The position numbers and the translations under genes are program-made. Under the pieces are notes generated by a model, which worked only from the letters and a program-made list of their open reading frames with translations, had not been told where the DNA came from and did not search any database. From Oidiodendron maius Zn (lineage: Eukaryota > Ascomycota > Leotiomycetes > Myxotrichaceae): a DNA stretch of 64,000 bases. Every line of letters starts with the position of its first letter. The stretch's first letter is position 1. Positions 54,508 through 57,023 of this stretch are shown here, piece by piece. The stretch covers positions 248,001 to 312,000 of the forward strand of contig KN832875.1 in NCBI GenBank assembly GCA_000827325.1. The letters are read 5' to 3'.

Positions 54508-56160
54508 ATGGATGGCGACCAGGGCCAACAAACTGCGCTTCTAAAGAAAAGGTTCGTGGTGACTGAGGCACTGCTACAAGTTCCATACGACCCGATCGCA
54601 TATCTCGAACGCGCCTCGGTCCACGCCAATCTGGGGTACCCAGATCTTGCAGCTGGAGATGCCTATCGAGCCCTCCTTTTGACTGACGAGATCAACAATG
54701 AAGGCTTCGAATATCATGAGCAAGCATTGGAGGCTCTGCGATCACGCTGCAAAGGCGGTGTTCCGGTCATCCTTCTCTCTCAGAACCCGGGACATCTCGA
54801 ATCCTCCGGTGGCGTGGAACGGACTGCTGAGTCCGTCGATGAGGACAGGCACCTGTTCGAAGTAAACCGTACAACCTCAATACATTGCTACCAGAGACTA
54901 GCCGCAAGCTTGCTACTTTGCGGATGTCTGAAAAGTGCTCATGATTTCTGCTCGCGAGGACTGGCCGCTTCGCCAGACAACACAGAACTGCTGACCACTC
55001 AAGAACACATCCATGTCGTGGCAAGGAAGAGGCTGAGAGGTGACGATGTGGATATGAATGACTTGCCCGACCAAGGGTTGGTACGGCGCGAGATCTATCC
55101 ATGGAATGAGCACGAGCCCAATCGATTCTCACATGAGACAATCGATTTCCTGAACGCTGAGCTGGTGAAGGTTGCGCCTAAATGTGAAGTAAAGATTGCT
55201 GAACTGCCAACCCTCATCGAAGGTCTCACTTCCACGGAAAGTCATGATATGGCCACAAATAAGCAATTAGGGCTGTTTGCAAAAGAAGACGTGGACCCGG
55301 GGGAGACTCTTCTCGATGAATATTCTATTCTCACAGTCAACAATCGCCTAAAAGAATCATTATGTGACGCGTGCAGCACCGAGCTCCCAAACTTAGGACC
55401 CGGAAGTTCTGTCGTAGGGTGTCCAGACTGCGAGGATACTATGTTTTGCGATAAGGAATGCCTAGCTAGGGCGGAGTCATATCACCCTGCCGTGTGCGAC
55501 AAAGACGTCGATACGATTGCCAAGGACCCAGATCCAAAGGAAACTCCTAATGCTCTTTACCTTCTCCTCCTCGCTCGTGCATTGGCTATGGCTCAAACCC
55601 AACAGTGCCATCCTCTTGAACTGCAGGAGATAAAATACATCTGGGGCGACTTCGTACAAGGTACTCCAAGTACCGTGTCCCTATCACCTCTTGCCCCTTC
55701 GCCGCCCATCTGGACCCTGCCATTCTCCTTCGCTTCGAATATCGCAGGGCCATTGCATATTCTCGAGAAAATGGACGTTGATATCTTCGATTCCCTCGCT
55801 GAAAACGACCTCTGGATATTCAATACCCTGTATGGCAAGTTCCGGGGTACGGCATCGGCGAGAGTGAATAAGAGAGATGGGCGGGTGGAGGTCGCCGCCG
55901 TCCATCCCTTGTGGTGCCTAGCAAACCATTCCTGCGATCCGAATGTCCGGTGGGAGTGGGGAGGGCAGATGAGGTTCTGGTGTCGCGAGAAGAGGATCGA
56001 CGAGGCCCTTGGAGGCATTCAAAAAGGCGAAGAGGTCTTGAGCCATTATTGTGACATCGAGCTGAGTGTCAAAGAGAGAAGAGAATGGGCCCAGGGCAGT
56101 TTAGGTGGCTGGTGCATGTGTGATAGATGTATAAAGGAGTCAGGAGAGGGAAGTGAGTAG
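54508..56160 (+). CDS. SET-domain protein with TPR and MYND-like zinc cluster
   Basis: Single exon, 550 residues. Residues 10-165 are helical with TPR-like periodicity (AYLERASVHANLGYPDLAAG; LLLCGCLKSAHDFCSRGLAA). The SET fold begins around residue 240 (NKQLGLFAKEDVDPGETLLD). It is interrupted by a Cys-rich zinc cluster at about 285-330 (SLCDACSTEL, GCPDCEDTMFCDKECL, HPAVC) and resumes with LANHSCDPNVRWEW, the NHSCxPN substrate and cofactor motif, and GEEVLSHYCDIEL. A post-SET CxCxxC lies in GWCMCDRC. The layout is that of SMYD/Set5-Set6-like fungal proteins; the target lysine is unknown, and it may act outside histones. Confidence 0.87.
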   Translation: MDGDQGQQTALLKKRFVVTEALLQVPYDPIAYLERASVHANLGYPDLAAGDAYRALLLTDEINNEGFEYHEQALEALRSRCKGGVPVILLSQNPGHLESSGGVERTAESVDEDRHLFEVNRTTSIHCYQRLAASLLLCGCLKSAHDFCSRGLAASPDNTELLTTQEHIHVVARKRLRGDDVDMNDLPDQGLVRREIYPWNEHEPNRFSHETIDFLNAELVKVAPKCEVKIAELPTLIEGLTSTESHDMATNKQLGLFAKEDVDPGETLLDEYSILTVNNRLKESLCDACSTELPNLGPGSSVVGCPDCEDTMFCDKECLARAESYHPAVCDKDVDTIAKDPDPKETPNALYLLLLARALAMAQTQQCHPLELQEIKYIWGDFVQGTPSTVSLSPLAPSPPIWTLPFSFASNIAGPLHILEKMDVDIFDSLAENDLWIFNTLYGKFRGTASARVNKRDGRVEVAAVHPLWCLANHSCDPNVRWEWGGQMRFWCREKRIDEALGGIQKGEEVLSHYCDIELSVKERREWAQGSLGGWCMCDRCIKESGEGSE

Positions 56161-56855
56161 GACATAAGGTGGGAGGGCAAGGAACAATAGTGTGATGGAT
56201 TTCGTGGGTGTTCAAGATATTAGAGATGGGGCCATACAAAAGGGTATTTAGAAGGGTTATTCAAATTAAAACCATACATTTCCTGCTCCTGTGACATACC
56301 AGTTTCCAAGACACTGCGAAAACTGGTTTGTGCTTGGATACAAGGCGCTCTTTAGAGACATTTTGTATCCTCAAGCCCATACAGGCCAGATCTTGGCGAA
56401 GTAAGTCTGAATTACCCGATCTGGAAGATCAGGTACCTTGGGATTACCTGTCAAGGATGCATTAACAGATAAACTAGAAGAAGAATAAATAAATATAGCT
56501 TTATATTATAAATCTATTAGACTGTCTGTTTGACAATTATTAGAAGCGACCTGAGTTTTGAGAATTAGTACGATTCCTATTAGGCTGGCCGGACCTTTTG
56601 AAACCTATTTACTTCCTATAAGCTGTACCATTGAGCATTACAAGTACTTATAGAAGATCCTTAATCCCTAGTTTATTATAAAGTCTAAAAATTAATATTC
56701 GCATGGCTGTCGCACAGTAGTAATTGTGTGAGTACTTTTCTACCCGAGGTACTGTAGATAACGAATATTCTAGCCGTTTCAGGAATATTAGTTATAACAT
56801 TCTAAATAAGGGTTTTCTCTTACAAGATACTCAATCGGAACAACCTTATCCCGAT
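56161..56855. other. AT-rich stretch before the tRNA gene
   Basis: No gene; strongly AT-rich from about 56440 to 56820. This zone just 5' of a tRNA gene may be decayed retroelement DNA, but no long terminal repeat ends or protein motifs are readable. Confidence 0.45.
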
Positions 56856-56999
56856 GACCTCGTGGCCTAATGGTTAAGGCGCCAGATTTCGGTCACGAAA
56901 TCAGAAATTCTCTGGAGATTGGGAGTTCGGTATGCGTTTAATAACGGCTTCGATTTTGACTCGTTTACTAATTCCTATAACAGAATCTTCCCGGGGTCG
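56856..56999 (+). tRNA. tRNA-Arg(TCG) with two insertions
   Basis: Folds as a full cloverleaf once two inserts are removed. The acceptor stem 56856-56862 pairs fully with 56992-56998 (one G-U). D stem is GCCT/AGGC. Anticodon stem 56882-56886 pairs with 56911-56915. Anticodon TCG at 56889-56891 reads Arg codons CGA and relatives. The T stem 56921-56925 pairs with 56987-56991. A 17-nt intron (56893-56909) lies after base 37, the normal eukaryotic place. A second insert of 54 nt (56930-56983) splits the T-loop after G57 (listed separately). The A box reads TGGCCTAATGG; the B box is interrupted. G73 is at 56999. Confidence 0.85.
56930..56983 (+). other. 54-nt spliceosomal-intron-like insert in the tRNA T-loop
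   Basis: Begins GTATGC, has a TACTAAT branch-like box at 56966-56972 and ends ACAG, with 11 bases between that box and the end, as in the window's mRNA introns. Removing it restores TTCGAAT followed by C61, a normal T-loop. No published example of such an intron in a nuclear tRNA is known to me; a defective gene is the alternative. Confidence 0.7.
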
Positions 57000-57010
57000 C
57001 TTCACATACC

Positions 57011-57023
57011 TTTTTTTTTTTTT
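57011..57023 (+). terminator. RNA polymerase III terminator (T13)
   Basis: A run of 13 T on the non-template strand, starting 11 bases after the tRNA 3' base at 56999. Its position behind the second tRNA half shows the gene's transcription unit spans the insert. Confidence 0.85.

What the first reader, a model, noticed from the sequence alone, without database searches (positions are those of the whole stretch)
56856..57023. A spliceosomal-type intron inside a tRNA-Arg gene
Seen directly: two tRNA-Arg(TCG) parts pair perfectly in acceptor and T stems once a 54-nt insert (56930-56983) between bases 57 and 58 is removed. The insert starts GTATGC, has TACTAAT 11 bases before its end and ends CAG, like the mRNA introns in this window. 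A normal 17-nt tRNA intron is also present at 37/38, and a T13 Pol III terminator follows. Eukaryotic tRNA introns are known at 37/38 and cut by the tRNA endonuclease; mRNA-type introns in Pol III genes are known mainly for some fungal U6 genes. A spliceosomal-like intron in a nuclear tRNA would need spliceosome access to a Pol III transcript, or dual processing.
Basis: partly seen in the sequence, partly recalled or inferred. Interest (0 to 1): 0.93.

Follow-up and report, generated by a model that had tools for sequence, protein, structure and literature searches.

The report
mRNA-type introns inside fungal tRNA genes
In this fungus about half of the transfer-RNA genes found, including the one in the window, are cut by short insertions that look like messenger-RNA introns, so the messenger-splicing machinery seems to be needed to make tRNAs, which textbooks do not expect.

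Summary
The window lies in Oidiodendron maius Zn. The tRNA-Arg(TCG) gene at 56856-56999 becomes a normal tRNA only when the 54-nt T-loop insert and the 17-nt intron at 37/38 are removed. No second copy was found. The genome holds 17 more tRNA genes cut by 44-56-nt GT...CTRAY...AG inserts: 21 inserts in 18 genes, against 19 uninterrupted loci found. Positions run from 6/7 to 57/58. Lengths match four mRNA introns of the window, 47-55 nt. In a scan that did not ask for splice signals, 10 of 14 loci needing one deletion had a GT..CTRAY..AG solution near the top (0.37 expected). The only complete initiator-Met gene found is interrupted. Best reading: spliceosomal introns in Pol III tRNA genes, removed by the spliceosome. 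RNA proof is missing, the census is incomplete, and the insert breaks the window gene's B box. Ten searches of the held library listed no report of this.

The parts
56805..56810 (+). AATAAG motif upstream, shared with other tRNA genes of the genome (putative upstream Pol III element)
   Evidence: AATAAG within 70 nt upstream in 11 of 18 interrupted and 8 of 19 uninterrupted tRNA genes, 1.15% of 70-nt background segments of the window; the motif was picked as the commonest 6-mer of the same upstream set
56856..56892 (+). tRNA-Arg(TCG) positions 1-37 (acceptor 5' strand, D arm, anticodon arm 5' half)
56893..56909 (+). 17-nt canonical tRNA intron at 37/38
   Evidence: ARAGORN 17-nt intron
56910..56929 (+). 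tRNA positions 38-57 (anticodon stem 3', variable loop, T stem 5', TTCG of T loop)
56930..56983 (+). 54-nt spliceosomal-type intron at 57/58: 5' site GTATGC, branch site TTTACTAAT, 3' site ACAG
56984..56999 (+). tRNA positions 58-73 (rest of T loop and stem, acceptor 3' strand, discriminator G)
57011..57023 (+). T13, probable Pol III terminator

Best explanation
The insert is a U2-type spliceosomal (mRNA-type) intron in a functional nuclear tRNA gene, one of at least 21 such introns in at least 18 tRNA genes of Oidiodendron maius. Proposed course: RNA polymerase III transcribes the gene (upstream element, internal boxes, T-run terminator); the spliceosome recognises GT..CTAAY..AG and joins the tRNA pieces; only then can the cloverleaf form, RNase P and RNase Z trim the ends and the tRNA endonuclease remove the ordinary 37/38 intron. 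Shown by sequence: gene anatomy, splice signals, restoration of the cloverleaf, recurrence. Inferred: which polymerase, removal by the spliceosome, the order of steps, and that the tRNA is used.
For: ARAGORN calls a tRNA in 18 of 18 genes after removal of the GT..AG inserts, 14 of 18 with the expected anticodon; with the canonical introns removed too, 17 of 18. In the intact DNA 11 of 18 give no call and 7 give one: 5 of a wrong type, 2 (Ala-AGC, Ser-CGA) the right anticodon with one long intron. 21 of 21 inserts have CTRAY with 9-13 nt after the branch A, 18 of 21 start GTNNG, length 44-56; letter-shuffled inserts would hold CTRAY near the end in about 2.7 of 21. None of the 14 canonical introns annotated in these genes has CTRAY in its last 30 nt. 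Where structure fixes the place, the structure-defined insert is GT..AG: Leu-TAG 1 of 2465 deletions, Ile-TAT 1 of 2201, Gly-CCC second 1 of 1863, and with a one-base twin Arg-TCG 2 of 2115, iMet 2 of 1620, Gly-GCC 2 of 2115 and 2 of 1946, Arg-CCT second 2 of 1863. Scan of 57 anchors without splice signals: 10 of 14 single-deletion loci against 0.37 expected, nominal P 1.6e-16; of the 28 low scorers only the two-intron genes Arg-CCT and Gly-CCC show such a solution near their top. The two Gly-GCC copies differ at 5 of 71 tRNA positions, all in the acceptor stem with pairing kept, and both keep the intron signals. The only complete initiator-Met gene found has an intron at 8/9 and exactly complementary acceptor halves AGCAATA/TATTGCT. 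Four mRNA introns of PHO13 and CaMK in the window are 47-55 nt.
Against: No RNA data. In the window gene the insert splits the B box (AGTTCG|GTATGC), so TFIIIC binding is doubtful for this copy. For Arg-ACG, Ala-AGC, Ala-CGC (by 2 points), Arg-CCG (by 1) and the first Tyr intron (by 0.5) another deletion scores higher than the GT..AG one; placement in the D loop and variable arm is loose (Ser-CGA: 115 of 2376 deletions reach the same score). The second Tyr insert and the Pro-AGG insert can be read as long anticodon-loop introns (Pro-AGG scores 30.5 uncut, 32.5 cut). L090 needs a deletion but has no GT..CTRAY..AG solution near the top; looser rules gave 15 mutually inconsistent rows there. Several loci were found with searches that themselves demanded GT..AG, the score limits were set after seeing the scores, and the two Gly-GCC loci are not independent. 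Minimum-energy folds of three spliced tRNAs are not clean cloverleafs, Gly-GCC least (z -1.2, -2.1, -2.5). Many expected isoacceptors (Phe, Trp, Asp and others) were not found, so intact copies may exist unseen. Related Gly-GCC sequences without the insert exist, though degenerate (L111, L112).
Confidence: 0.8

Rival explanations
1. The interrupted genes are pseudogenes: insertions hit spare tRNA copies that are no longer used.
For: No RNA evidence; B box of the window gene is split; an iMet fragment (L110/L113) and degenerate Gly-GCC relatives (L111, L112) show that tRNA decay does occur in this genome.
Against: 18 genes whose cloverleafs are restored by the removal; acceptor stems complementary across the intron; compensatory changes between the two Gly-GCC copies; no uninterrupted iMet or Arg-TCG copy found, within the limits of those searches.
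Confidence: 0.08
2. The inserts are tRNA-endonuclease introns at unusual places, cut at bulge-helix-bulge motifs as in archaea and some red algae.
For: Ectopic tRNA introns of that kind are known in archaea and algae (recalled; for PMC4090602 and PMC3978253 the search listing with abstract starts was seen, and passages of the first).
Against: 21 of 21 inserts carry GT, branch site and AG; the BHB test gives a mean of 5.67 of 10 against 6.14 for shuffled inserts and 0 of 21 full motifs. That test is weak: the 14 canonical introns score only 6.43.
Confidence: 0.03
3. The introns are spliceosomal, but these tRNAs are made as parts of Pol II transcripts, which gives the spliceosome its usual access.
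For: Explains splicing without a Pol III exception; the B box is broken in the window gene.
Against: T runs follow the genes (a search condition, but the window gene with T13 and Arg-ACG with a run of about ten T were found without it); the upstream AATAAG motif is shared with uninterrupted tRNA genes (motif chosen on the same data); the window gene lies between convergent genes, not in one.
Confidence: 0.09
4. On origin, not function, and so compatible with the best explanation: recent spread of one mobile introner-like element into tRNA genes.
For: Uniform length and signals; many genes hit.
Against: Intron cores are no more alike than shuffled ones on average (0.473 against 0.469); the Gly-GCC pair is alike because the genes are duplicates, and the next best core pairs (0.67-0.69) barely exceed the best shuffled pair (0.655). 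Old spread is not excluded.
Confidence: 0.1

Closest known systems
mRNA-type intron in the U6 snRNA gene of Schizosaccharomyces pombe (and of some other fungi, recalled)
   Same: Spliceosomal intron in a gene transcribed by RNA polymerase III (PMC8917221, passages seen, citing Tani and Ohshima 1989, 1991).
   Different: Here the hosts are tRNA genes, at least 18 of them, at many positions; the two U6 matches above cut-off in this genome span the whole U6 model (letters not read).
Ectopic spliceosomal introns in nuclear rDNA of lichen-forming ascomycetes
   Same: Spliceosomal introns in a non-mRNA, non-Pol II transcript in ascomycetes (PMC8527467, passages seen, citing Bhattacharya et al. 2000).
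   Different: Pol I rRNA rather than Pol III tRNA; O. maius is not a lichen fungus (recalled).
Canonical eukaryotic tRNA introns at 37/38 removed by the tRNA endonuclease
   Same: Present in the same genes (14 annotated).
   Different: Those are 7-42 nt, without CTRAY near the end; the new inserts lie elsewhere in 20 of 21 cases (Tyr second is next to 37/38).
Ectopic BHB introns of archaea and red algae
   Same: tRNA introns outside 37/38 (recalled).
   Different: No BHB found, with a weak test; mRNA-type signals instead.

Membership tests
U2-type spliceosomal intron | GT at 5' end and AG at 3' end | tested here: met
   21 of 21, though some loci were found with GT..AG as a search condition; structure alone gives GT..AG in the fixed positions
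U2-type spliceosomal intron | fungal branch site near the 3' end | tested here: met
   CTAAY 20 of 21, CTGAC 1; 9-13 nt after the branch A
U2-type spliceosomal intron | length like the mRNA introns of the same genome | tested here: met
   44-56 nt against 47-55 nt in four introns of PHO13 and CaMK; a fourth PHO13 call of 88 nt at the last codon was dropped as spurious
U2-type spliceosomal intron | removal by the spliceosome, lariat | not testable with these tools
   no RNA data
functional nuclear tRNA gene (window gene) | complete cloverleaf with matching anticodon after intron removal | tested here: met
   ARAGORN tRNA-Arg(tcg); the minimum-energy fold is only cloverleaf-like
functional nuclear tRNA gene (window gene) | intact internal B box in the DNA | tested here: not met
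   AGTTCG|GTATGC; the gene is absent from the complete B-box list. Genes with the intron at 53/54 keep a B-box match because the intron ends in AG
functional nuclear tRNA gene (window gene) | T-run terminator after the 3' end | tested here: met
   T13 at 57011-57023
functional nuclear tRNA gene (window gene) | expressed and aminoacylated tRNA | not testable with these tools
   no RNA data
canonical tRNA-endonuclease intron | position 37/38 | tested here: not met
   57/58 in the window gene; 20 of 21 inserts elsewhere
BHB (archaeal-type) intron | bulge-helix-bulge at the exon-intron junctions | tested here: not met
   0 of 21 full motifs, mean below shuffled inserts; the test has low power
introner-like mobile intron | near-identical copies | tested here: not met
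   mean core identity 0.473 against 0.469 shuffled

The most novel reading that the evidence does not exclude
In Oidiodendron maius the spliceosome is an obligatory tRNA-maturation machine: about half of the nuclear tRNA genes, initiator Met among them, carry one or two mRNA-type introns at positions from the acceptor stem to the T loop, so translation depends on splicing of Pol III tRNA precursors, and two splicing systems act on the same molecules.
Probability: 0.75. Interest if true: 0.97.

Novelty: new variant of a known kind. Interest (0 to 1): 0.93.

Why it matters
It would break the rule that eukaryotic nuclear tRNA introns sit at 37/38 and are handled by the tRNA endonuclease, and would make the question of how the spliceosome reaches Pol III transcripts testable on essential genes rather than on U6 alone. 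It would also mean that tRNA finders undercount in such genomes: of the 18 interrupted genes ARAGORN called none correctly as a simple tRNA gene and the Rfam model put 2 above its cut-off (Arg-CCG with a wrong 5' end, iMet in part), which bears on codon-use studies that rely on such counts. It offers a clean system for intron gain, since the empty state of every site is known from the universal tRNA fold.

Tried and rejected
Rejected: a chance resemblance; assembly error (the same signals at loci on ten contigs); ectopic BHB introns (weak test); an introner burst; a general invasion of Pol III genes, since two U6 matches span the full model. Tried and led nowhere: ARAGORN and Rfam gathering search of the window (nothing); pattern for intact TCG tRNAs (3 rows, reversed-pattern control 3; ARAGORN finds no tRNA at them). 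Ten paper searches gave no account of such introns; two searches listed only 20 of 24 and 20 of 136 papers. Dropped before counting: tRNA-derived, SINE-like hits L048, L049, L053; unclear or degenerate loci L088, L090, L093, L110/L113, L111, L112; the fourth PHO13 intron call. STRAP introns were read by eye only and not counted; two of them lack a clear branch site. About 20 distinct 3' ends were judged by eye as not tRNA-like and never fetched. One search gave 29 rows at four loci under looser rules, many of them inconsistent; I kept one reading each at L085 and L097, two at L092, none at L090. The window's T-loop insert holds a TTCGA (56949-56953) that could act as a substitute B-box core; I regard this as speculation.

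Full report
WHAT IS THERE. The window carries a tRNA-Arg(TCG) gene at 56856-56999. With a 17-nt intron at 37/38 and a 54-nt insert between positions 57 and 58 removed, a 73-nt tRNA results that ARAGORN calls tRNA-Arg(tcg); with the insert in place ARAGORN and the Rfam gathering search find nothing in the window, and the Rfam tRNA model reaches 19.8 bits at the gene, below its cut-off of 29. The insert reads GTATGC...TTTACTAAT...ACAG. A T13 follows at 57011-57023. The acceptor and T stems each contain one wobble pair. The gene lies between a forward reading frame ending at 56160 and the convergent PHO13 gene.

ORGANISM. Two window proteins are identical to Oidiodendron maius Zn proteins on a contig of 2,193,815 bases, the length of contig C6 that holds the window. 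It is a Leotiomycete. G000 has 45.9 Mb in 58 contigs.

NOT ALONE. The Rfam tRNA model gave 24 matches at E 10 or better in the whole genome, 63 of 1439 candidates having been scored, so this is a lower bound. Reading the weak matches showed further interrupted genes. A D-arm pattern (26 rows, reversed-pattern control 18) brought Arg-ACG. A B-box plus T-run pattern, independent of introns, listed 92 rows against 74 for its reversed control, so most rows are chance; I read those I had fetched and left about 20 distinct 3' ends unread. In all I annotated 18 interrupted tRNA genes with 21 mRNA-type inserts: Leu-TAG 6/7, Arg-CCG 7/8, iMet 8/9, Tyr-GTA 12/13 and beside 37/38, Ile-TAT 13/14, Arg-CCT 15/16 and 53/54, eMet 16/17, Gly-CCC 16/18 and 49/50, Arg-ACG 19/20, Ala-AGC, Ala-CGC, Thr-AGT and Pro-TGG 21/22, Pro-AGG 33/34, Ser-CGA variable arm, Gly-GCC (two copies) 53/54, Arg-TCG 57/58. 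Nineteen loci are uninterrupted apart from 37/38 introns; ARAGORN calls a tRNA at 19 of 19, with the anticodon that I assign by eye at 10 of 19; I put the other 9 down to misplaced short introns. After removing the mRNA-type inserts ARAGORN calls a tRNA in 18 of 18, with the expected anticodon in 14 (Arg-CCG, Arg-ACG, eMet and Ile-TAT are typed otherwise while their canonical intron is in place); with canonical introns also removed, in 17 of 18. In the 18th (Pro-TGG) I had cut the canonical intron one base too long.

SIGNALS. The 21 inserts begin GT and end AG, 18 of 21 begin GTNNG, 20 of 21 have CTAAY and one CTGAC, 9-13 nt follow the branch A, and the length is 44-56 nt. Letter-shuffled inserts would show CTRAY near the end in 2.7 of 21. 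None of the 14 canonical introns annotated in these genes has CTRAY in its last 30 nt. Four mRNA introns in PHO13 and CaMK in the window are 47-55 nt and hold CTRAY on reading; STRAP introns of similar length were seen by eye and two lack a clear branch site.

CONTROLS. (a) 3258 candidate GT..CTRAY..AG stretches in 640,918 strand-bases were removed one at a time; 27 rows gave a tRNA across the junction, all at loci that I then annotated as tRNA genes, and within the 64-kb window only at this gene. (b) All deletions of 30-80 nt were scored in each gene, other introns having been taken out first. In tightly fixed places the best-scoring deletion is the GT..AG one, alone or with its one-base twin (Leu-TAG, Ile-TAT, Gly-CCC second, Arg-TCG, iMet, both Gly-GCC, Arg-CCT second). 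In five cases another deletion scores higher (Arg-ACG, Ala-AGC, Ala-CGC, Arg-CCG, first Tyr), and D-loop and variable-arm cases are loose. (c) A scan of 57 anchored loci that did not ask for splice signals: 15 score as uninterrupted (one, Pro-AGG, better with its insert removed), 14 need one deletion, 28 score 25 or less, among them the two-intron genes Arg-CCT and Gly-CCC. Of the 14, 10 have a GT..CTRAY..AG solution within 1.5 points of the best, 0.37 expected, nominal P 1.6e-16; Ala-AGC, Arg-ACG and Ala-CGC miss that limit and L090 has none. Among the 15 only Pro-AGG has such a solution near the top, among the 28 only Arg-CCT and Gly-CCC. The score limits were set after seeing the scores. 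Some loci had been fetched with GT..AG in mind, which biases the number of loci but less the within-locus test in (c). (d) Minimum-energy folds of the spliced Arg-TCG, iMet and Gly-GCC are not clean cloverleafs.

FUNCTION. The only complete initiator-Met gene found is interrupted; its second match (C6:1037750) lacks a D arm within about 270 nt upstream, although a GT..CTAAC..AG stretch precedes it. The two neighbouring Gly-GCC copies differ at 5 of 71 tRNA positions, all in the acceptor stem with pairing kept (two compensatory changes and one change to a wobble pair), while their introns differ by substitutions and small gaps and keep all signals. Two degenerate Gly-GCC relatives lack the insert at 53/54 but keep the 7-nt 37/38 intron (L111, L112); they show the empty site, and are either ancestral or derived from a partly spliced precursor. 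An AATAAG motif, chosen as the commonest 6-mer of the same set, lies within 70 nt upstream of 11 of 18 interrupted and 8 of 19 uninterrupted genes, against 1.15% of background segments, which argues for one promoter type. Two U6 matches span the whole U6 model.

MECHANISM. Best reading: Pol III precursor, spliceosomal removal of the mRNA-type intron, then folding, end trimming and removal of the 37/38 intron. Steps after anatomy are inference. The main point against the window gene itself is the split B box.

LITERATURE. No paper on spliceosomal introns in nuclear tRNA genes was listed in the ten searches (with six phrases and 0 papers, 56, 74, 81) of the held open-access library, some lists being cut; most subscription papers are not in it. 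Passages seen: PMC8917221 (U6 intron), PMC8527467 (rDNA spliceosomal introns; yeast removes them from Pol I transcripts), PMC5315462 (tRNAscan-SE used on 45 fungi, O. maius in the table), PMC8069745 (298 tRNAs in the relative Amorphotheca resinae), PMC4090602, PMC6461891, PMC10161547, PMC4494063, PMC8476143.

VERDICT. The finding is confirmed and is larger than first described. Spliceosomal introns in Pol III genes are known for U6, so I file it as a new variant of a known kind, at the far edge of that class, because no tRNA gene with such an intron is known to me.

Noticed in passing
L094 (C8:923120-923430, - strand) and L103 (C19:215890-216215, + strand): Arg-CCT and Gly-CCC each appear to carry two mRNA-type introns plus a canonical 37/38 intron.
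   Followed up: yes
L092 (C8:618360-618660, + strand): Tyr-GTA has a 44-nt GTAACA..AACTAACGATAGCCAG stretch directly beside a 15-nt canonical intron; it could be an intron next to an intron or one 59-nt canonical intron.
   Followed up: partly
L048, L049, L053: tRNA-derived, SINE-like repeats (two nearly identical) scoring as weak tRNA matches.
   Followed up: no
L090 (C7:510248-510550, - strand): tRNA-like ends with good acceptor and T stems but about 120 extra bases in the anticodon region and no GT..CTRAY..AG solution near the top.
   Followed up: partly
L110 and L113 (C6:1037480-1037815, + strand): 3' half of an initiator-Met tRNA with a changed but still paired T stem, preceded by GTAAGC..GGCTAACATAACATAG; no D arm was found upstream, only a lone AGCAATA about 230 nt away.
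   Followed up: partly
L111, L112 (C6:1617395-1617500 and C6:1656925-1657100, - strand): Degenerate Gly-GCC relatives without the 53/54 insert but with the 7-nt 37/38 intron, either ancestral or derived from a partly spliced precursor.
   Followed up: partly
genome G000: Few tRNA genes found for a 46-Mb ascomycete, mostly single copy as far as found (the searches are capped); the relative Amorphotheca resinae is reported with 298 (PMC8069745).
   Followed up: partly
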